Part shown: positions 3,969 through 41,020 of the stretch, piece by piece
Layout: every line of letters begins with the position of its first letter
How positions within the stretch are numbered: the stretch's first letter is position 1
From: an uncultured Bacteroidia bacterium
Lineage (GTDB): Bacteria; Bacteroidota; Bacteroidia; Bacteroidales; F082
Length of the DNA: 49,347 nucleotides
NCBI GenBank assembly: GCA_902791165.1
Contig: CADAVB010000033.1
Location: 1-49,347 of the forward strand
Reading direction: 5' to 3'
Translations under genes and position numbers: made by a program
The notes under the pieces: generated by a model
The model's database searches: none
Told to the model about the DNA's origin: nothing
The model's input: only the letters and a program-made list of their open reading frames with translations

Positions 3969-5219
3969 TTATTGCATACTTGGCAAAACGCCGTTACTTC
4001 GCATGAAGCACTCGATTTCATCCGCGTGCCGTCCACGGATGATGACGTGGTGGTTGCCAATGCTGTGTTGCAGCAGGTAAGGCTTGAGATTCACGTTGAG
4101 TGTGATTTGTGTGCGGCAGAAATGGTCGCTATACGGCGTTTCAATGGCTTGCGCCTCGGCAACGAAATAACGGTCCAACTGCGGGCCTCCCCATTTGAAT
4201 AAGGTGTAATCGGTTAAAGGCAGCAAGCCTTGCACGGCCACGCCGATGCCCGACTCGAAATGCGAGCGGACGATGGTTTCGTCGCAGAAACTGAGCGGGA
4301 TGGTGCAATGCGCGAGCATCGAAGACTGGTCGGTGAGTTGCGATGGGTTGGCCATGAAGGCCGTTTCGCCGCAAATTCGCTTGGCCAAATACATGCTTAT
4401 CAGCGACTGCATGTCGCCTTCGCAGCCGGCCACGATACCTTCGTCGTTGAGCAAGGCCAATGCCAAACAACTCGTTGTTTTGCATGATGTTACAATGTCG
4501 AAACAACGGATGGTCAGCGCGTTCAAACGTTCTTCAGCGCAAATCTTTTTGAGGGTCAGATACACCTTGGCGCCTTCAATCATGTCGGCGTTGGTCGGTT
4601 CTTTGACGGCTTTGGCTCGTTCCAACAAGGCTTGCGCCACCTTTGCGGCCTTGTCTTGCGGTGTCGCATTAATGCCGTCTTTGACCCGTTGCAGGTCAAT
4701 ATCAATAGTTTCGATGCCATAGCGTTGGCGGAGCATTTCGCGGTCCACGCCGCTGGCAATGAGCCAATCCGACGGTTGGCCGAACAACCCGATTCGTCCC
4801 CGTAGTAGAGAGGCACGGCCGAGCCTCTCTACGAGGTTCGATACAATTTCATTGTCCGTCCCGTGCAAAATCTTCCCTTCCACCCCGATATTTTCCAAAT
4901 AGGTCAATATTTCCAAGGATGCGGCCAAGGAATTGTTGCGTCCGTCGGCAATCATGGTCACGGTTTTATGGCCAAGCGGCGAACACGTCATTTCCACGTC
5001 GATGACCTCCCAAATGCGTTTGAACAGGTTCTCGACGCCGCCAGTGGCAATCATAAAGGCATCGGGCAATATTTGTGCGGTCGGCGTTTCCGCGTTTTCA
5101 TCGCCAACAATGCTGATTTCAGCATGACATTCGTTTTCAAGCCGTTGAATCAGGTCGGCATATTCTGTCCTGACAAATTCGTCGGTTTGGAACGAAGAAC
5201 GGAGGATGAATATTTTCAT
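3969..5219 (-). CDS. L-fucose/L-arabinose isomerase-family protein
   Basis: 416 residues resembling the FucI/AraA C-terminal-domain superfamily of Mn2+-dependent aldose-ketose isomerases. Visible family features are GQPSDWLIASG (148-158), a Cys-Glu-x-Asp metal/catalytic motif in GCEGDMQSLISMYLA (265-279), and a C-terminal beta region with HCTIPLS (304-310) and GNHHVIIRG. It is shorter than FucI (~590) or AraA (~500), as in the small isomerase-like proteins common in Bacteroidetes. The real sugar is unknown. Residues 130-139 (VERLGRASLL) are encoded by a 28-nt palindromic repeat that looks inserted in frame. It follows the T9SS thioredoxin gene by 3 nt and is probably co-transcribed with it. 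Confidence 0.65.
   Translation of the reverse strand: MKIFILRSSFQTDEFVRTEYADLIQRLENECHAEISIVGDENAETPTAQILPDAFMIATGGVENLFKRIWEVIDVEMTCSPLGHKTVTMIADGRNNSLAASLEILTYLENIGVEGKILHGTDNEIVSNLVERLGRASLLRGRIGLFGQPSDWLIASGVDREMLRQRYGIETIDIDLQRVKDGINATPQDKAAKVAQALLERAKAVKEPTNADMIEGAKVYLTLKKICAEERLNALTIRCFDIVTSCKTTSCLALALLNDEGIVAGCEGDMQSLISMYLAKRICGETAFMANPSQLTDQSSMLAHCTIPLSFCDETIVRSHFESGIGVAVQGLLPLTDYTLFKWGGPQLDRYFVAEAQAIETPYSDHFCRTQITLNVNLKPYLLQHSIGNHHVIIRGRHADEIECFMRSNGVLPSMQ
4805..4832. repeat. GTAG...CTAC palindromic repeat inside the isomerase gene
   Basis: Arms GTAGAGAGGC and GCCTCTCTAC (perfect 10 bp) around loop ACGGCCGA. On the coding strand it reads VERLGRASLL. It shares sequence and reading frame with the two halves of the repeat inside malQ at 19487-19559. 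Confidence 0.8.
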
Positions 5220-10912: not shown

Positions 10913-10986
10913 TGTAGGGCTGTCGTACCACGGCAGCCGCATATCGCAATTACATTATGCGGCAGCCACGATGTGACAGCCCTACA
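10913..10986. repeat. Nested palindromic repeat after the amidase gene
   Basis: Outer arms TGTAGGGCTGTC/GACAGCCCTACA (perfect 12 bp) enclose an inner hairpin GCCGCATA/TATGCGGC. It fills the gap between two convergent stops (10908 and 10993), where it may also act as a terminator. It is related to the copy at 40968-41020. Confidence 0.85.
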
Positions 10987-17738: not shown

Positions 17739-19703
17739 TTAGCCACGACGCACTTCATCCGTAAGTGATTCTATCGTCATCCTCATCCGCCATTTCCATT
17801 GGTTTTTGGCGTTTGCAGGCACATTGATTTGGTCGTCCGCTGGGTTGGGCGACCAAATTTTTTCGTCCAAGTCCAACAAGTCTTGCAGCGGGTAGATGTT
17901 CCATTTCGAGGGACTGTCCTGATGTTTTTCCATGATTTTCTTGAGCGTCTTGGCGGTGACTTTGCGGTCGTCAAGGTCGAGGTCGTCAAGAAATTGGCGG
18001 GTTCTGACTTTGTCTTCGGCCAACCAGCCGCGCAAGGAGGGCATATCGTGGGTGCCGGTGGTATAGACGCAGTTTTCGGGTAGGTCTTCGGTCTGTACAA
18101 ATTGGTGGCCAAAGACCTTGGGCATACGCTGCACCTCAAGGCTCAAGATGCCCAACCGTTGCATCACTTCAGGCACACAAGCGGGAATCATGCCGAGGTC
18201 TTCACCGCAGGCAATCATTTTCGTTGTATTGACCAAAGCGGGCAGTTTTTCCAAAGCTTTCTGTTTCCAAAACTCGTTGTGGCGGTGGTAATAGAAATCC
18301 TCGTAAATGCGGTCGATGGTCTGTTTTTGGTCGTCGCTGAGGGCTTGATAGGCCTTGGTTTTTTGCAGTTCGATGCGGGGATGGTACTTTTCGCTGTCGT
18401 GCGGGTCGGATATGAAAAGTGTATCGATATCTTTCTTCAAATGCTTGCTTTTGATGAAATGAAAACCTTGGTTTTCAATTTCTTCCATACTCAAAGGCAG
18501 GGCAGGGGAGAAATGCCCCAACAAGCCCGATTTGGCGGTTTTGGGAACCTCCCAAATGCGGAAAAAGCCCAAGATATGGTCGATGCGGTAGGCGTCGAAA
18601 TAGCGGGCCATCACTTGCAGGCGGCGTTGCCACCACGCATAGTCGTCCTTGGCCATTGCCTCCCAGTTGTAGGACGGGAAGCCCCAATTCTGACCCTCGG
18701 CGGCGAAGTCGTCGGGCGGCGCGCCCACTTGCACATCGAGGTTGAACAAGTCGGGATGCGATTTCACGTCCACGCCTGCGGGATTCACGCCAATAGGGAT
18801 GTCGCCTTTCAGCAGCAAGCCCTTGTCGTGCAAGGCTTTGACGGCTTCGCGCAGTTGCTTGTCGCAATGGTATTGCAGAAAAAGGTGGATTTCTGTGCCG
18901 TTGCCGTCGCGCTTGGCGCAAAATTGGGCGTAGTCGGGCAACCAGTCTTCGTTTTCTTTTACAAATTGCTGGAAATCATCGCTGTTTTTCAGTGTTTCCC
19001 ATTGCTGCTCGAAGGCGATTTGGAAGTGTTTCCATTTGGCTTTCAGCACCTTGGGATAATCGACTGAATCTTTTCCGTTGAGCGTCGTCCTCGTCCGCTT
19101 GAAAGCCGCGTCTTCCTTGATGCCCAATTGCTTGAGGTTCAGGTAAATCGGATTCAGAGCAAAGGCCGAAATGGCGTTGTATGGATAGGAATCGCGCCAG
19201 TCGTAGTGTGCCGTTGTGTCGTTGATGGGTAGGATTTGTATGATTTTCAGTCCGTTGGCCACGCACCAATCACCCAATTTCGGCAGGTCGGCATATTCCC
19301 CGATGCCGAAATCGTCCTCTGTGCGCAGGCTGAACAATGGCACGGCCACGCCTTTCATGGTTTGCCTTTCGGTGAGGCCGAACCAGTCCCAAATGCGGTC
19401 TTTGCCCTCGGGCAGGATGCGGTTGGGACCGTCCTCCCAACGGATTTGGCCGTTTTCGCGGATGAAATATTTGTATTCCGTGGTCGGTAGAGACGCACGG
19501 CCGTTCGTCTCGATTCTTGGTTTTGTTTTTTTAGGAGACGCAAGGCATTGCGTCTCTACAGAGGCAGACCAAATCCCAGGCCCCACATATTCCATCGGAA
19601 TGGCCTTTTCCGTGTTCCAATTGCCTAATGCTGCGCTGTTTCCCGTGAGGAACAATTCCTCGCCCCAGCGGCTGTCGTATCTGAGTTTGAATAGGGTTTT
19701 CAT
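17739..19703 (-). CDS. malQ: 4-alpha-glucanotransferase (GH77) with one starch-binding domain
   Basis: 654 residues. One CBM20-like domain (about 1-105, WGEELFLTGNSAALGNWNTEKAIPM) is followed by a GH77 amylomaltase domain. Catalytic signatures are the nucleophile Asp in YFDAYRIDHILGFFR, the acid/base Glu in ACGEDLGMIP and the third carboxylate in TGTHDMPSLRGW. It transfers maltodextrin segments in glycogen/starch metabolism. Bacteroides MalQ usually carries two CBM20 domains (~890 residues), so this is a short form. Residues 49-73 are encoded by a double palindromic repeat (19487-19559) that interrupts the CBM20 in frame. The predicted promoter sits 5 nt before the ATG, implying a nearly leaderless mRNA. 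Confidence 0.92.
   Translation of the reverse strand: MKTLFKLRYDSRWGEELFLTGNSAALGNWNTEKAIPMEYVGPGIWSASVETQCLASPKKTKPRIETNGRASLPTTEYKYFIRENGQIRWEDGPNRILPEGKDRIWDWFGLTERQTMKGVAVPLFSLRTEDDFGIGEYADLPKLGDWCVANGLKIIQILPINDTTAHYDWRDSYPYNAISAFALNPIYLNLKQLGIKEDAAFKRTRTTLNGKDSVDYPKVLKAKWKHFQIAFEQQWETLKNSDDFQQFVKENEDWLPDYAQFCAKRDGNGTEIHLFLQYHCDKQLREAVKALHDKGLLLKGDIPIGVNPAGVDVKSHPDLFNLDVQVGAPPDDFAAEGQNWGFPSYNWEAMAKDDYAWWQRRLQVMARYFDAYRIDHILGFFRIWEVPKTAKSGLLGHFSPALPLSMEEIENQGFHFIKSKHLKKDIDTLFISDPHDSEKYHPRIELQKTKAYQALSDDQKQTIDRIYEDFYYHRHNEFWKQKALEKLPALVNTTKMIACGEDLGMIPACVPEVMQRLGILSLEVQRMPKVFGHQFVQTEDLPENCVYTTGTHDMPSLRGWLAEDKVRTRQFLDDLDLDDRKVTAKTLKKIMEKHQDSPSKWNIYPLQDLLDLDEKIWSPNPADDQINVPANAKNQWKWRMRMTIESLTDEVRRG
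19487..19559. repeat. Double GTAG...CTAC palindrome inserted in malQ
   Basis: Outer arms GTAGAGACGC/GCGTCTCTAC. The right half is a perfect hairpin GAGACGCAA/TTGCGTCTC; the left half, GAGACGCACGGCCGTTCGTCTC, is near-palindromic. The two are joined by a T-rich 21-nt linker. On the coding strand they give VETQCLASP and IETNGRASLP, in the same frame as the isomerase copy. Confidence 0.85.
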
Positions 19704-32052: not shown

Positions 32053-32084
32053 AAAAAAAGGAGGCTTTCGAGCCTCCTTTTTTT
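32053..32084. terminator. Strong bidirectional terminator
   Basis: 14-bp stem (32053-32066 and 32071-32084) with core GGAGGCT/AGCCTCC, tetraloop TTCG and A/T tracts on both sides. Serves the PdxA-like gene (+) and the T9SS gene at 32103 (-). Confidence 0.93.
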
Positions 32085-32102
32085 GTTTGGGTTCGTGTGA
32101 AT

Positions 32103-34175
32103 TTACTTCACGATGAACTTCATGGTGTTCTCGAAGCCGTTGGCCTTCACAGTGACGAAGTAGATGCCGCTGCTGAGGTCGGTGGTGCTGATCGAGGGAG
32201 TGTTGATGCCAGCGTGGAGGTTCACGTTCTTCTCCATCACCTTTTGGCCGGTGATGTTGAACACGGCGATGTTCATGTCGGAGCTTTGCGAGGCATTCAC
32301 TTCGATGTTGAGCACGCTCGTGGCGGGGTTGGGATACACGCGGGTGGTGGTCATCGGGTTGACGGCAACGTGTTCTTCGGTGTTGAGGAGAAGGTCGCTG
32401 TCCGGAACCAGTTTCACAGCCCAGATGATGCCATCGGAGGCAGCGGTTTGGGTGGCGCCGTTACCCACGTTCAGACCCACCATTTGGTCGGCTTGGAAGC
32501 TGAACCAGAACTCGTGATCAACCGTGTTGGTGATGCCGTTGACGAAAATGGCTTCGTCCATCGAGTGGAAGAATCCCCATTCTTCGTCTTCAACATCTTG
32601 CAGATACTCCATGTTGTAGAAGTAGTTGCCGGGATGGTCGGTGTAGCTTTCTTCTTCCGGATTGTCGTATTGGTTGTAGAAAGCGTCGCCAGCGATATAG
32701 GGAGCTTCAAGGTAGGAAACCACAACGCTTCTGTAGTACTTGTTGGTGGAAGCATCGATACGGCTCGGGTCCACCATGCTGAAGGCGATGGCGATGGTGC
32801 CGTCGGCATCCACGCAGATGGCCGGCGAGCAGGACATACCAAGCCAGAAGCCACGGTAGTCCTGTTCGTCGTGTACGAGGTCGTTGTTGAATTCACCAGC
32901 TTGTTGGATCAAACCGAGGTCAACGAAACCGATGACGTTTTGGTTGAAGTTGCGTCTTACGTATTCACCACTTTCGTCGGTGGGGAACCAGAAACGGAAA
33001 GCGTTGCGCTTGCTAGGCTCGATCACGAAGCCGTCGTCGGGGCAAGTCCAACCGGGACCCACGACAGTGCCCATGGTTTCGTTCCAGTAGAAGATACCGT
33101 CCATGGTGAGGCCGCCGCCAACCATCCAAGTGTCGCCCAATTCGGGGTGATAGAACATCATGGAAGAGTAGGCTGCGTGAACCATACCGTTGTTGTCGAT
33201 GCAGATGGAGGCGTTATCAGGACCGAACATTCTTTGGTCGTCTCCAAAGACCGAGGCTTCGTCGTTCTCCCAGTCGAGGCCAGCGTAGGGGTTGTCCCAC
33301 ACCTTGATTTGGGTCCAGGTTTCGCCGTTGTCGGTCGATTTGATGATGTAAGCGTTTTCTTGAGCGCTGCCCGAGAACGACATGGCCACGACATTGCCGT
33401 TGGCGGCCAGGCTGTAGGTGTCGGCGCTGAAGTTCTCACCGTCTTGGAGGGTGGGGATGGTGGTCACCGTCCAGTTTTCACCGTCGGTGCTGCGGGCGTA
33501 GTAGTCGTAAGAAATGAAGTCGTCGGCTTGGTCGGCGGCAATCACGTGGATGATGTCGTGGTTGGGGCCAGAGGTGACCACTTTGGGCCAGGTCATGACT
33601 TCGGCCGGATAGCCCAGGTCGGGGTTCGGGATGTACTTGGGGCCAACCCATTCGCCTTCGCCTTTGGTGGCGCGGGTGTAGTAAACGAGGTCGTTACCGG
33701 TGTGGGCCACGACGATTTCGCCGTTGGTGCCGTATTGGCAGTACACGGGCCAGCCAGTACGCATTCCTTCGATGCGGGCTTCGGGCTGGTCGCCAAATTC
33801 GCTACCGTCATAGAAGTTGTAGCCAGTGCCACGGTTGGCGCTGTTGTCGGGGAATTGTCCCACGAGACCGACCGAACCGTCGTCGAAACGCCACATGCGG
33901 TTGGCGACGAAACCGTTGGCACCGAGGTCCATTTGGGTGGTCATGGTTTCAAAGTCGGCGCGGGCATCGTATCTGGTGCCGTAGTGGGCCGTGGCAGGAA
34001 CGCCAGCGTTGGGAGTGAATTGAGCGGCTTCAGTAGCAGCTTCTTTGCCAAAAGCCATCGTCTTGTTGCTCACTTTGACGAAGTTGCTCTTGTCGTTCTT
34101 AACCCGAAGGTCCTTTTGGGCAAAGCCCGTCATTCCTACTGCGAGGATGAGCGATAAGAATAATACTTTCTTCAT
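32103..34175 (-). CDS. T9SS-secreted propeller (sialidase-fold-like) protein A
   Basis: 690 residues. Signal peptide (1-19, MTGFAQ); a long beta-propeller-like body with Asp-box-type turns (STDGENWT, STDNGETWT) as in BNR/sialidase-fold proteins; C-terminal T9SS type A sorting domain (about 605-690, RVYPNPATSVLNIEV, NITGQKVMEKNV, GIYFVTVKANG, ending MKFIVK). No sialidase catalytic set is recognised, so binding or structural roles are possible. It is a close paralogue of the next gene (34359-36413), with near-identical signal peptide and sorting domain. Expected on or outside the cell surface. Confidence 0.85.
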   Translation of the reverse strand: MKKVLFLSLILAVGMTGFAQKDLRVKNDKSNFVKVSNKTMAFGKEAATEAAQFTPNAGVPATAHYGTRYDARADFETMTTQMDLGANGFVANRMWRFDDGSVGLVGQFPDNSANRGTGYNFYDGSEFGDQPEARIEGMRTGWPVYCQYGTNGEIVVAHTGNDLVYYTRATKGEGEWVGPKYIPNPDLGYPAEVMTWPKVVTSGPNHDIIHVIAADQADDFISYDYYARSTDGENWTVTTIPTLQDGENFSADTYSLAANGNVVAMSFSGSAQENAYIIKSTDNGETWTQIKVWDNPYAGLDWENDEASVFGDDQRMFGPDNASICIDNNGMVHAAYSSMMFYHPELGDTWMVGGGLTMDGIFYWNETMGTVVGPGWTCPDDGFVIEPSKRNAFRFWFPTDESGEYVRRNFNQNVIGFVDLGLIQQAGEFNNDLVHDEQDYRGFWLGMSCSPAICVDADGTIAIAFSMVDPSRIDASTNKYYRSVVVSYLEAPYIAGDAFYNQYDNPEEESYTDHPGNYFYNMEYLQDVEDEEWGFFHSMDEAIFVNGITNTVDHEFWFSFQADQMVGLNVGNGATQTAASDGIIWAVKLVPDSDLLLNTEEHVAVNPMTTTRVYPNPATSVLNIEVNASQSSDMNIAVFNITGQKVMEKNVNLHAGINTPSISTTDLSSGIYFVTVKANGFENTMKFIVK

Positions 34176-34243
34176 GTTGTTTAGTTTTAGATAAATAATG
34201 AATTAATGTGTTTAGTGTGTTTCAAATTGAAGTTTAAGAGCGA

Positions 34244-34251
34244 CAAAAATA
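34244..34251 (-). promoter_or_regulatory. -7 box of T9SS propeller gene A
   Basis: TATTTTTG on the minus strand, 68 nt upstream of the ATG at 34175, giving an AT-rich leader of about 60 nt. Confidence 0.65.
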
Positions 34252-34305
34252 GACATTTTCTTTCAATTGGCAACTTTTTTTCTGAAAAAAACTGCATTTT
34301 TAACG

Positions 34306-34334
34306 AAAAAAGGAGGCCCGAAGCCTCCTTTTTT
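34306..34334 (-). terminator. Terminator of T9SS propeller gene B
   Basis: 12-bp stem AAAAAAGGAGGC/GCCTCCTTTTTT with loop CCGAA, 24 nt beyond the gene B stop (34359). Same GGAGGC core as the terminator of gene A at 32053-32084. Confidence 0.9.
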
Positions 34335-34358
34335 TCATGCTTAAAGTCGTGTGTGTGC

Positions 34359-36413
34359 TTACTTCACGATGAACTTCATGGTGTTCTCGAAGCCGTTGGC
34401 CTTCACAGTGACGAAGTAGATGCCGCTGCTGAGGTCGGTCGTGCTGATCGAGGGCGTGTTGATGCCAGCGTTGATGTTCACGTTCTTTTCCATCACCTTT
34501 TGGCCGGTGATGTTGAACACGGCGATGTTCATGTCGGAGCTTTGCGAGGCATTCACTTCGATGTTGAGCACGCTCGTGGCAGGGTTGGGATACACGCGGG
34601 TGTTGGTCATCGGGTTGACGACTTCGTTCTCTTCGATGGAAACGGGTGATTCGGGAACGATCTTGACCGCCCAGAGGATGTTCTCGGTGGCGGCGGTTTG
34701 GGTGGCGCCGTTGCCAATGTTCAGACCCACCATTTGGTCAGCTTGGAAGGCGAACCAATACTCGCGATTAACCGTGTTGGAGATGCCGTTGACGAACAGG
34801 GCTTCGTCCATGCTGTGGAAGAATCCCCAGTCTTCGTCGTCGATGTCTTGGAGATTCTCTATGTTGTAGTAGTAGTCGCCTTGATAGTCGGTGTAGCCTT
34901 CCTCGGTGCCGCCATTGAGGGCGTCGCCAATGTTGTAGGGAGAATCGATGTAGGAAACGAAAACGCTTCTGTAGTACTTGTTGGAAGAAGCATCAACGCG
35001 GGTAGGATCCACGACGCTGTAGGCGATGGCGACGGTGCCTTCGGCATCCACGCAGATGGCAGGGGTGCAGGAGCATCCTAACCAGTGGCCGTTGTAGTCT
35101 CTCTCGTGGTGGAAATTGTCGTTGCTCCATTCTTGGGCAGCAAGTGGATCGACGAAACCGATAAGGGGTTGGTCGAAGTTGCGGCGCACATATTCGTCAG
35201 CTTCAGAGGTGGGATACCACATGCGGAACACGTTGTGCGGGTCGGGTTCGAGCACGTAGCCGTCTTCAGGGCAGGTCCATTCGGGAGCTTGCATGACACC
35301 CATGTTCTCATTCCAGTAGAAGATGCCTTCCGAGGCGGTCAGACCGCTCCAGATGTAAACGCCAACACCTTCGCCACGGTCTTCGTGGGTAATCATCCAT
35401 GATGAGAAGGCGGCGTGAACCATGCCGTTGTTGTCGATGCAAAGGGTGCCGTTTTCAGGGCAGTACATGGGGTGTTCTTCGCCGAAGAGGGCCGAAGGCT
35501 CCTCGTCCCAGTTCTCGAAGTGGGAATAGGGGTTCTTCCACACGGTGATGCGGTTCCAGGTCTCGCCGTTGTCAGTCGATTTGACGATGAAGGCATCGTA
35601 GGGCGCGGCGCCGCAGAACAGCATGGCTACGGTGTTGCCATTGACGGCCAAAGCGTAGCTGTCGGCAGTGAAACGCTCGTAGCTGTTGAACGTGGGAACA
35701 GTGGTCACCGTCCAGTTTTCGCCGTCGGTCGATCTGCCGTAGAAATTGTAGGAAATGTTGTCGCTGTCTTGCGAGGCGGCAACAACGTGGATGATGTCGT
35801 GGTTGGGGCCGGAAGTAATCACTCTGGGCCAGGTCAAATCTTCATCGGGGAAACCGAGTTCGGGGTTCGGCACATACTTGGGGCCAACCCATTCGCCTTC
35901 GCCTTTGGTGGCGCGGGTGTAATAAACGAGGTCGGAGCCAGTGTGGGCCATGACGAGTTCGCCGTTGGGGCCATACTGGCAGTAGCTCGGCCAACCAGTC
36001 TTGATGCCTTCGATGCGAACATCGGGTTGTTCGCCAAATTCGTTGCCGTCGTAGAAGTTGTAGCCCGTGCCACGGTCAGAGCCGTTGGAGGGGAAGGTGG
36101 TCACCACGCCGACGCTGCCGTCGTCGAAACGCCACATGCGGTTGGCGACGAAAGCATTCGACTGGAGGTCCATCTGGGTTACCATGGTCTCGAAATCGAC
36201 GCGCGAATCGTACCTGCTGCCGTAGTGAGCCGTGGCGGGAGCGCCTGCCACAGGGGCGAAGCTGCTGGTTTCAGCAGAGGTTTCCTTGCCAAAAGCCTTC
36301 TTTTGTTCCAGTCTGATGCATTGGTTCTTGCCAACCTTTACATCTTGGTTCTTTTGGGCGAAGCCCGTTGTTCCTGCTGCGAGGAGGAGCGATAAGAATA
36401 GAACTTTCTTCAT
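34359..36413 (-). CDS. T9SS-secreted propeller (sialidase-fold-like) protein B
   Basis: 684 residues from the ATG at 36413, which opens the signal peptide (TTGFAQK). Same layout as protein A: a short variable region, a propeller body sharing long collinear blocks (TAHYGSRYDSRVDFETMVTQMDL, NRMWRFDDGSVGVV, YYTRATKGEGEWVGPKY, SGPNHDIIHVVAA), Asp-box turns, and a T9SS type A sorting domain. The body has diverged widely from A, but the last ~240 coding bases differ at only about eight positions. Each copy has its own promoter and terminator. Function unknown; likely surface-displayed or released. Confidence 0.85.
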   Translation of the reverse strand: MKKVLFLSLLLAAGTTGFAQKNQDVKVGKNQCIRLEQKKAFGKETSAETSSFAPVAGAPATAHYGSRYDSRVDFETMVTQMDLQSNAFVANRMWRFDDGSVGVVTTFPSNGSDRGTGYNFYDGNEFGEQPDVRIEGIKTGWPSYCQYGPNGELVMAHTGSDLVYYTRATKGEGEWVGPKYVPNPELGFPDEDLTWPRVITSGPNHDIIHVVAASQDSDNISYNFYGRSTDGENWTVTTVPTFNSYERFTADSYALAVNGNTVAMLFCGAAPYDAFIVKSTDNGETWNRITVWKNPYSHFENWDEEPSALFGEEHPMYCPENGTLCIDNNGMVHAAFSSWMITHEDRGEGVGVYIWSGLTASEGIFYWNENMGVMQAPEWTCPEDGYVLEPDPHNVFRMWYPTSEADEYVRRNFDQPLIGFVDPLAAQEWSNDNFHHERDYNGHWLGCSCTPAICVDAEGTVAIAYSVVDPTRVDASSNKYYRSVFVSYIDSPYNIGDALNGGTEEGYTDYQGDYYYNIENLQDIDDEDWGFFHSMDEALFVNGISNTVNREYWFAFQADQMVGLNIGNGATQTAATENILWAVKIVPESPVSIEENEVVNPMTNTRVYPNPATSVLNIEVNASQSSDMNIAVFNITGQKVMEKNVNINAGINTPSISTTDLSSGIYFVTVKANGFENTMKFIVK

Positions 36414-36473
36414 GATGTGTAAGTTTTTGTTTATAATAAATGAATTAGTGCCATTTTGTGAATATTCAGCCTG

Positions 36474-36481
36474 CAAATATA
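36474..36481 (-). promoter_or_regulatory. -7 box of T9SS propeller gene B
   Basis: TATATTTGC on the minus strand, 60 nt upstream of the ATG at 36413. Confidence 0.65.
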
Positions 36482-40967: not shown

Positions 40968-41020
40968 TGTAGGGCTGCCGTGATACGACAGCCCTACAGG
41001 TACGGTGTGACAGCCCCGCA
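40968..41020. repeat. GTAG...CTAC palindromic repeat after the PFK gene
   Basis: Arms TGTAGGGCTG/CAGCCCTACA (40968-40977 and 40989-40998), followed by a partial third arm (GTGTGACAGCCCC). Related to 10913-10986, sharing the run ACGACAGCCCTAC and the ACGxTGTGACAGCCC end. It starts 6 nt after the PFK stop. Confidence 0.8.

What the first reader, a model, noticed from the sequence alone, without database searches (positions are those of the whole stretch)
19487..19559. Palindromic element inserted in frame inside malQ, encoding a 25-residue peptide
Seen: two linked palindromes with outer GTAG/CTAC arms interrupt the CBM20 domain and keep the frame, encoding VETQCLASP and IETNGRASLP. Similar GTAG...CTAC palindromes lie between genes at 10913 and 40968. 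Known: Rickettsia palindromic elements insert in frame into genes in the same way. Inference: a protein-tolerated mobile palindrome in Bacteroidetes.
Basis: partly seen in the sequence, partly recalled or inferred. Interest (0 to 1): 0.75.

Follow-up and report, generated by a model that had tools for sequence, protein, structure and literature searches.

The report
Mobile DNA hairpins inside protein genes
Rumen Bacteroidales carry short mobile DNA hairpins in frame inside loops of their proteins, and across related species the hairpin is kept or swapped as a hairpin even though that changes the protein, so the DNA element rather than the protein seems to set this stretch of sequence.

Summary
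Window 19487-19559 is a 73-nt GTAG...CTAC double palindrome lying in frame in malQ. Its GTAGAGACG family occurs in 71 of 75 sampled genomes of the window's genus (up to 78 copies; control 0) but in only 3 of 74 other sampled genomes of the family. At this one malQ site, 44 orthologues are 22 single 28-nt palindromes, 9 doubles, 11 empty and 2 outgroup forms; the singles use 11 inner 10-mers, about six of them unrelated. The window holds a second in-frame copy at 4805-4832, in a sugar-isomerase-like gene.

Among palindromic rows, pairing is 93-97% at three sites while paired letters change together. In 11 malQ genes synonymous change is 9/429 codon comparisons inside the element, 1943/7220 beside it. 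At one isomerase site both halves of a pair changed. So the hairpin appears maintained as DNA inside coding sequence.

In-frame GTAG REPs are already known (PMC3733652). New here: the Bacteroidales family, and fixed protein-loop sites whose palindromes turn over. The agent is unidentified: no Y1 transposase among 71 loci is bracketed by this family.

The parts
19487..19559 (-). 73-nt double palindrome (outward-facing GTAG dimer: 25-nt unit, 23-nt spacer, 25-nt unit) read in frame in malQ as VETQCLASPKKTKPRIETNGRASLP
   Evidence: (I15)
17739..19703 (-). malQ, 4-alpha-glucanotransferase with N-terminal CBM20; host gene
4805..4832 (-). second in-frame element of the same kind, 28 nt, GTAGAGAGGCTCGGCCGTGCCTCTCTAC in sense, read as VERLGRASL; not listed in the finding
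3969..5219 (-). sugar-isomerase-like gene (416 aa; no Pfam match, weak match to sulfoquinovose isomerase NF048012 far below its cut-off); host of the second element
   Evidence: (I4)
40968..41020 (.). GTAGGGCTG palindrome plus a degenerate unit
   Evidence: (D19)

Best explanation
The element is a GTAG-type REP, in its doubled (REPIN-like) form, of a family that multiplied in one genus of rumen Bacteroidales. Copies lie between genes and also in protein loops; those that keep the frame survive as about 9-10 (single, 28 nt) or 25 (double, 73 nt) tolerated residues. Shown: the family, the in-frame sites, three states at the malQ site, paired letters changing together, and synonymous conservation. 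Inferred: once in a loop, the site stays a docking place where the hairpin can be overwritten by a variant active in that genome (copying or renewed transposition through the near-constant GTAGAGACG/CGTCTCTAC ends), and where mismatches between arms can be corrected by template switching at the hairpin during replication. The protein tolerates the change rather than directing it. The enzyme that moves the family is not identified.
For: Family: 71 of 75 genus genomes, 3 of 74 others, controls 0. malQ: 44 orthologues = 22 single, 9 double, 11 empty, 2 outgroup; 11 inner 10-mers in the singles, same frame. States are scattered on the malQ tree: 12 changes on 34 tips against 14.0 shuffled, P 0.11. 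Wholesale swap: L055 against L140 and L058, flanks 92% alike, inner 10-mer 20% alike. Pool: among 21 genomes with a single element in malQ, the two with GTGTGCACAC there rank second and third in genome-wide copies of that variant, permutation P 0.019; a wider test that includes the isomerase gave P 4e-4 but is biased, because G112 was chosen for its many elements and genomes not read counted as lacking it; leaving G112 out, isomerase only, P 0.030 in 36 genomes. Covariation on palindromic rows: malQ 94.3%, isomerase site A 96.9%, site C 93.2% of cells paired, with 26, 41 and 52 cells changed on both sides; partner slid by 1-3 columns gives at most 56%. In-place compensation at site C: G083 GAGAGGC/GCCTCTC, G170 GAGAGTC/GCCTCTC, G103 GAGAGTC/GACTCTC, one copy of this arm type found in each genome. 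DNA-level conservation: 9/429 against 1943/7220, 0 of 90 flank windows as low. The insert is a low-confidence loop between two strands of the modelled CBM20 domain.
Against: Site B of the isomerase is not palindromic in 11 of 13 species read, so upkeep is not universal. In G112 and G167 the malQ copy is the only exact CACGGCCGTG element found in the genome (G167 is 79% complete), so no donor is seen there, and G112, richest in GTGTGCACAC, keeps CACGGCCGTG in malQ. No Y1 transposase locus of 71 is bracketed by this family, and several genomes, 94-100% complete, hold 10-19 copies with no Y1_Tnp match (G014, G067, G076, G079, G095). The G170 intermediate lies in a gene whose upstream frame is broken in that draft genome. 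State scatter on the tree could also come from recombination of malQ between species. Covariation rows were picked as palindromic, which inflates the percentage paired.
Confidence: 0.62

Rival explanations
1. Arm correction alone: the palindromes are old, vertically inherited inserts whose arms are homogenised by replication template switching; no copying between loci is needed.
For: Compensated pairs at isomerase site C with an arm type found once in each of those genomes; further compensated arm pairs at sites A and C. Template switching is reported to create and maintain hairpins (PMC8794818, abstract and opening text).
Against: Inner 10-mers swap wholesale between near relatives (8 of 10 letters); the same variants, some with the same mismatch, recur at different loci and in both orientations; the in-gene variant leans towards the genomic pool (P 0.019 and 0.030); synonymous identity inside the element is far above the flanks, which arm correction by itself would not give.
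Confidence: 0.17
2. The hairpin has a selected function in the mRNA or DNA of these genes (stability, attenuation, protein binding), and purifying selection keeps the pairing.
For: Compensatory changes and strong synonymous constraint.
Against: Orthologues without the hairpin are common: 11 of 44 malQ, 22 of 28 XerD; mismatches in the sense strand are A-C 23 and G-T 23, with no lean to RNA wobble pairs (though shared variants weigh on this count); positions differ from gene to gene; isomerase site B lacks pairing in 11 of 13.
Confidence: 0.13
3. The changing alleles spread by homologous exchange of malQ and other genes between co-resident rumen species, not by events at the hairpin.
For: States are almost random on the malQ tree; doubles with alike spacers occur in distant branches.
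Against: Immediate flanks differ between genes sharing a palindrome (L055 and L067); change of palindrome at a fixed site is seen in two genes; the palindrome differs where flanks are over 90% alike.
Confidence: 0.08

Closest known systems
GTAG-tagged REPs and their HH dimers (Di Nocera et al. 2013, PMC3733652: abstract, Results parts 1-2 of 4 and passages seen)
   Same: GTAG end, short stem, many copies, outward dimers, alternative complementary stem letters, some copies in frame inside genes, dimers or groups coding 20-30 residues.
   Different: That survey lists GTAG repeats in Proteobacteria, Cyanobacteria, Chloroflexi and the PVC group, and Bacteroidetes under CGTC repeats. The parts seen describe no orthologous in-gene site where the palindrome changes and stays paired. 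The single form here pairs GTAG with CTAC.
REPINs with RAYTs (Bertels and Rainey 2011, PMC3116915: abstract seen)
   Same: Doublets in inverted order able to form one large hairpin, spread through a genome.
   Different: Those REPINs lie in extragenic space and near specific RAYTs; no such link was found here.
Rickettsia palindromic elements (passages of PMC3733652, and recall)
   Same: Palindromes in frame inside genes that likely code working proteins.
   Different: Another tag (CGTC for RPE-4 and RPE-6) and host. That RPEs deteriorate with time is recalled; my search for it found no paper on it.
Coding palindromes in nematomorph mitochondria (PMC6649704, abstract seen)
   Same: Coding sequence and strict palindromy kept together.
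   Different: There the arms code conserved protein; here the palindrome sits in a loop and its residues change freely.

Membership tests
GTAG REP | terminal GTAG tetranucleotide | tested here: met
   a few in-gene copies have lost it (L053, L080)
GTAG REP | short stem-loop of 20-40 bp in many copies in the genome | tested here: met
   21 palindromes in the window's genome, up to 78 elements in relatives
GTAG REP | GTAG lies unpaired outside the stem | tested here: inconclusive
   true of each unit of the 73-nt doubles if taken alone; folded whole, and in the 28-nt singles, GTAG pairs with CTAC
GTAG REP | mostly between genes | tested here: inconclusive
   own genome: 5 of 15 palindromes read (of 21) are clearly in genes, malQ's two halves among them, others intergenic or unclear; G112: 7 of 15 places read (of 78) lie in long ORFs
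REPIN | inverted doublet with spacer | tested here: met
   window element; 9 of 44 malQ; a doublet also in a rhamnosidase loop, L334
REPIN | RAYT gene near or flanked by the same repeat | tested here: not met
   none of 71 Y1_Tnp loci bracketed; single copies 856 and 1236 nt away in L165 and L227; L191 has GAGACG hairpins on both sides, without GTAG and within unlike repeats. The 71 are part of the matches.
Rickettsia palindromic elements RPE-4/RPE-6 | CGTC-tagged repeat | tested here: not met
   tag is GTAG; tag of RPE-4/-6 from PMC3733652
Rickettsia palindromic elements | in-frame insertion tolerated by protein | tested here: met
   open frames (sequence only; activity of the proteins not tested)

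The most novel reading that the evidence does not exclude
In a whole bacterial genus, certain protein loops are long-lived docking sites for replicating DNA hairpins: palindromes there are repeatedly overwritten by the genome's current variant and their arms repaired, so that a selfish or self-correcting DNA structure, not the protein, dictates the coding sequence.
Probability: 0.42. Interest if true: 0.85.

Novelty: new variant of a known kind. Interest (0 to 1): 0.7.

Why it matters
In-frame REPs and RPEs are usually treated as chance passengers. Here dozens of related species give a natural time series of the same in-gene sites: empty, single and double states, wholesale swaps, compensated base pairs, and a site without pairing beside sites that kept it. 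That makes two questions testable: how palindromic repeats stay palindromic, and how REPs spread when no flanking transposase is found. It also warns that residues at such loops, and their apparent covariation, report on DNA events and not on protein function.

Tried and rejected
Accidental palindrome or conserved protein segment: rejected by shuffles, reversed-pattern controls and free change of the residues. Phage origin: no match in 50,697 phage records. A flanking RAYT as mover: 71 Y1_Tnp loci read, none bracketed by the family (one search looked only for perfect stems of 8 or more, so one search repeated the scan by pattern); the window genome's one Y1_Tnp has other repeats around it. Clean 25-residue insertion: single-form sites gain 9 nt (most malQ singles against two outgroups, most of isomerase site A against the window) or 12 nt (XerD) for a 28-nt element, so 16-19 nt of native sequence is absent there; against the 36-nt empty malQ form the gain is 12-18 nt. 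Whether bases were replaced or trimmed later was not resolved. RNA-wobble signature: none, A-C 23 and G-T 23. A literal search for GTAGAGACG gave 143 papers; the 40 listed had titles unrelated to bacterial repeats. Searches that bear on what is in print; only CC0/CC BY/CC BY-SA papers are held, so 'not found' is weak.

Rows dropped. malQ: L077 (begins inside the element), L085, L086, L088 (about 41% alike), L236, L248, L249, L250 (no N-terminus found); L246 was left out of the 44 by the script but reads as empty. The tree used 34 sequences of at least 600 residues. Isomerase sites: of 38 sequences aligned (the window twice), the anchors found site A in 27, B in 14 and C in 33; L263 is the window's own gene and was then counted once. 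Covariation used distinct palindromic rows: 15 malQ, 16 site A and 19 site C; empty or decayed rows are not in those percentages. The first site C count (16 rows) had left out L284, L294 and L296; one search includes them. XerD, rhamnosidase and the isomerase were chosen because G112 carries elements in them.

Full report
What is there. Window 19487-19559 is a 73-nt double palindrome inside malQ (17739-19703, minus strand), read in frame as VETQCLASPKKTKPRIETNGRASLP. It folds far better than shuffled sequence (z -6.1, 0 of 200). malQ codes a 4-alpha-glucanotransferase with an N-terminal CBM20 domain. A model of the first 130 residues puts the insert in a loop of low confidence (pLDDT under 50 for 55-63 and 65-71; the C-terminal tail of the fragment is low too) between strands 44-50 and 76-83.

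The family. GAGACG..CGTCTC palindromes occur at 21 places in the window's genome against 2 for the reversed control. GTAGAGACG..CGTCTCTAC elements occur in 71 of 75 sampled genomes of the same genus, up to 78 copies in G112, with 0 control matches; of 74 sampled genomes from other genera of the family 3 have 1-2 copies. Named relatives found with MalQ are mostly rumen and other ruminant-gut Bacteroidales, among them bacterium F082. The palindromes at 10913 and 40968 belong to a second GTAG family, GTAGGGCTG; of the loci read most copies lie outside long ORFs or where a coding reading is doubtful, and L027 and L035 lie in likely genes.

The malQ site. Of 44 orthologues scored, 22 carry a single 28-nt palindrome, 9 a double, 11 are empty at 36 nt and 2 outgroups have an uninserted 42-nt form. 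The element starts at the same place and frame in the filled forms, but the inner ten bases of the singles take 11 forms, about six of them unrelated, such as CACGGCCGTG, GTGTGCACAC, TTGCGCGCAA, CAAAATTTTG, CGCCATGGCA and CGGCGCGCCA. The states fall almost at random on the malQ tree: 12 changes against 14.0 for shuffled labels, P 0.11; the finer palindrome types follow the tree a little, 20 against 23.0, P 0.007. L055 differs from its near relatives L140 and L058 in 8 of 10 inner bases with flanks 92% alike.

A second copy in the window and three sites in one gene. A sugar-isomerase-like gene at 3969-5219 holds an in-frame palindrome at 4805-4832. Counting the window once, its orthologues have nearly perfect palindromes at site A in 18 of 26 species read (at most 2 of 14 pairs broken) and at site C in 19 of 32 (at most 3 broken). 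At site B only 2 of 13 are palindromic and 11 have 6-10 pairs broken while coding a similar VE..C peptide; I read these as decayed copies, which is inference. Site B thus serves as an internal control: pairing can be lost. Random 28-mers of these genes average 10.5 broken pairs.

Pairing is maintained while letters change. Counting base pairs on the distinct palindromic rows gives 94.3% (malQ, 15 rows), 96.9% (site A, 16) and 93.2% (site C, 19) of cells paired, with 26, 41 and 52 cells changed on both sides; no shuffle of 500 reaches these values for cells paired or cells changed on both sides, and sliding the partner by 1-3 columns gives 26-56%. Because rows were chosen as palindromic, the percentage paired is inflated; the both-sided changes are the telling part, and related rows are not independent. 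At site C, G083 has GAGAGGC/GCCTCTC, G170 GAGAGTC/GCCTCTC and G103 GAGAGTC/GACTCTC, in stretches 94-96% alike; the arm type was found once in each of these genomes and in 7 of 90 genomes in all, four times at this site and three times inside malQ-like genes of another branch. The window shares the first form, so the order given is likely but inferred. Both steps change the amino acid (R to S, A to D). In G170's draft the reading frame upstream is broken, which weakens that one intermediate.

Conservation at the DNA level. Among 11 malQ genes with the CACGG-type palindrome, synonymous differences are 9 of 429 codon comparisons in the element and 1943 of 7220 in the flanks; none of 90 flank windows of nine codons is as low. 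In G112 and G167 that copy is the only exact one of its type found in the genome, so continued resupply is not shown there. On the other side, of 21 genomes with a single element in malQ the two with GTGTGCACAC rank second and third in genome-wide copies of that variant (P 0.019), and for the isomerase without G112 P is 0.030 in 36 genomes; the stronger value, 4e-4, rests on a biased choice of genomes. G112, the richest in GTGTGCACAC, keeps CACGGCCGTG in malQ. The evidence therefore allows both occasional overwriting from the genomic pool and repair or conservation in place; their balance is unresolved.

Other genes. In G112, 7 of 15 element places read (of 78) lie in frame in long ORFs, including XerD, a rhamnosidase and the isomerase. 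XerD holds an element in 6 of 28 species read, 78 nt against 66 nt for the empty form. In the rhamnosidase loop 6 of 28 hold this family or a near variant and others hold unrelated repeats. In the window's genome an AcrB-type transporter and a surface protein carry elements in frame. Element lengths of 28 and 73 are both 1 modulo 3, so an in-frame result needs a further change of length; nets of +9 and +12 show that native bases were lost as well.

Mechanism. No Y1 transposase locus of 71 is bracketed by the family; the nearest full copies are 856 and 1236 nt away, on one side. Of 90 genus genomes 65 have a Y1_Tnp match while some element-rich genomes have none. Template switching is a reported way to create and maintain hairpins (PMC8794818, abstract and opening text), and gene conversion was raised for REPs before (a title in the reference list of PMC3733652). 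I favour docking in tolerant loops followed by overwriting and arm correction; the agent is inferred.

Known or new. In-frame GTAG REPs, inserts coding 20-30 residues and Rickettsia elements are in print (PMC3733652). In the passages seen and the searches I found no report of GTAG REPs in Bacteroidales, nor of orthologous in-gene sites whose palindromes turn over while staying paired. I therefore rate it a new variant of a known kind.

Noticed in passing
L061-L063, L065, L066, L068, L070-L072, L078: malQ alignment columns 194-262: A second in-frame insertion site in malQ holds another repeat type around ATAGATTC..GAATGACAT; in L063, L065 and L066 a further palindrome seems nested inside it; not seen in the window's malQ.
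   Followed up: partly
rhamnosidase loop in L159, L257, L265-L267, L270, L273, L277, L321-L340: One orthologous protein loop holds several unrelated repeats in different species: GTAG singles and a double, GTCATTGCGAG-type palindromes, ACTCTCAACT tracts, and others.
   Followed up: partly
L010/L011/L035, window genome contig C23: One surface protein gene carries two GAGACG palindromes and a GTAGGGCTG unit in frame, plus a peptide SLRAQRSNPG that looks like yet another repeat.
   Followed up: no
L091:1501-1528: In a genome of another genus of the family the element lies in frame inside what reads, by eye, as a Y1-type transposase gene.
   Followed up: no
L191:1293-2276: A Y1 transposase of G124 has GAGACGCTGAAAGCGTCTC hairpins on both sides, within longer unlike repeats and without GTAG.
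   Followed up: partly
L341, L345, L346: Three genomes of another branch share the GAGAGGC-arm palindrome at a different in-frame site of a malQ-like gene, just before LLICGEDLG.
   Followed up: no
L284, isomerase site C: A fully paired 28-mer with quite different arms, TCAGGGGCGG..CCGCCCCTGA, around a GTGTGCACAC-like core.
   Followed up: no
window 32054-36476: Two neighbouring paralogous ORFs (32103-34175 and 34359-36476) share 288 nt at 94%; GGAGGC hairpins with T runs lie at 32054-32087 and 34302-34335.
   Followed up: no
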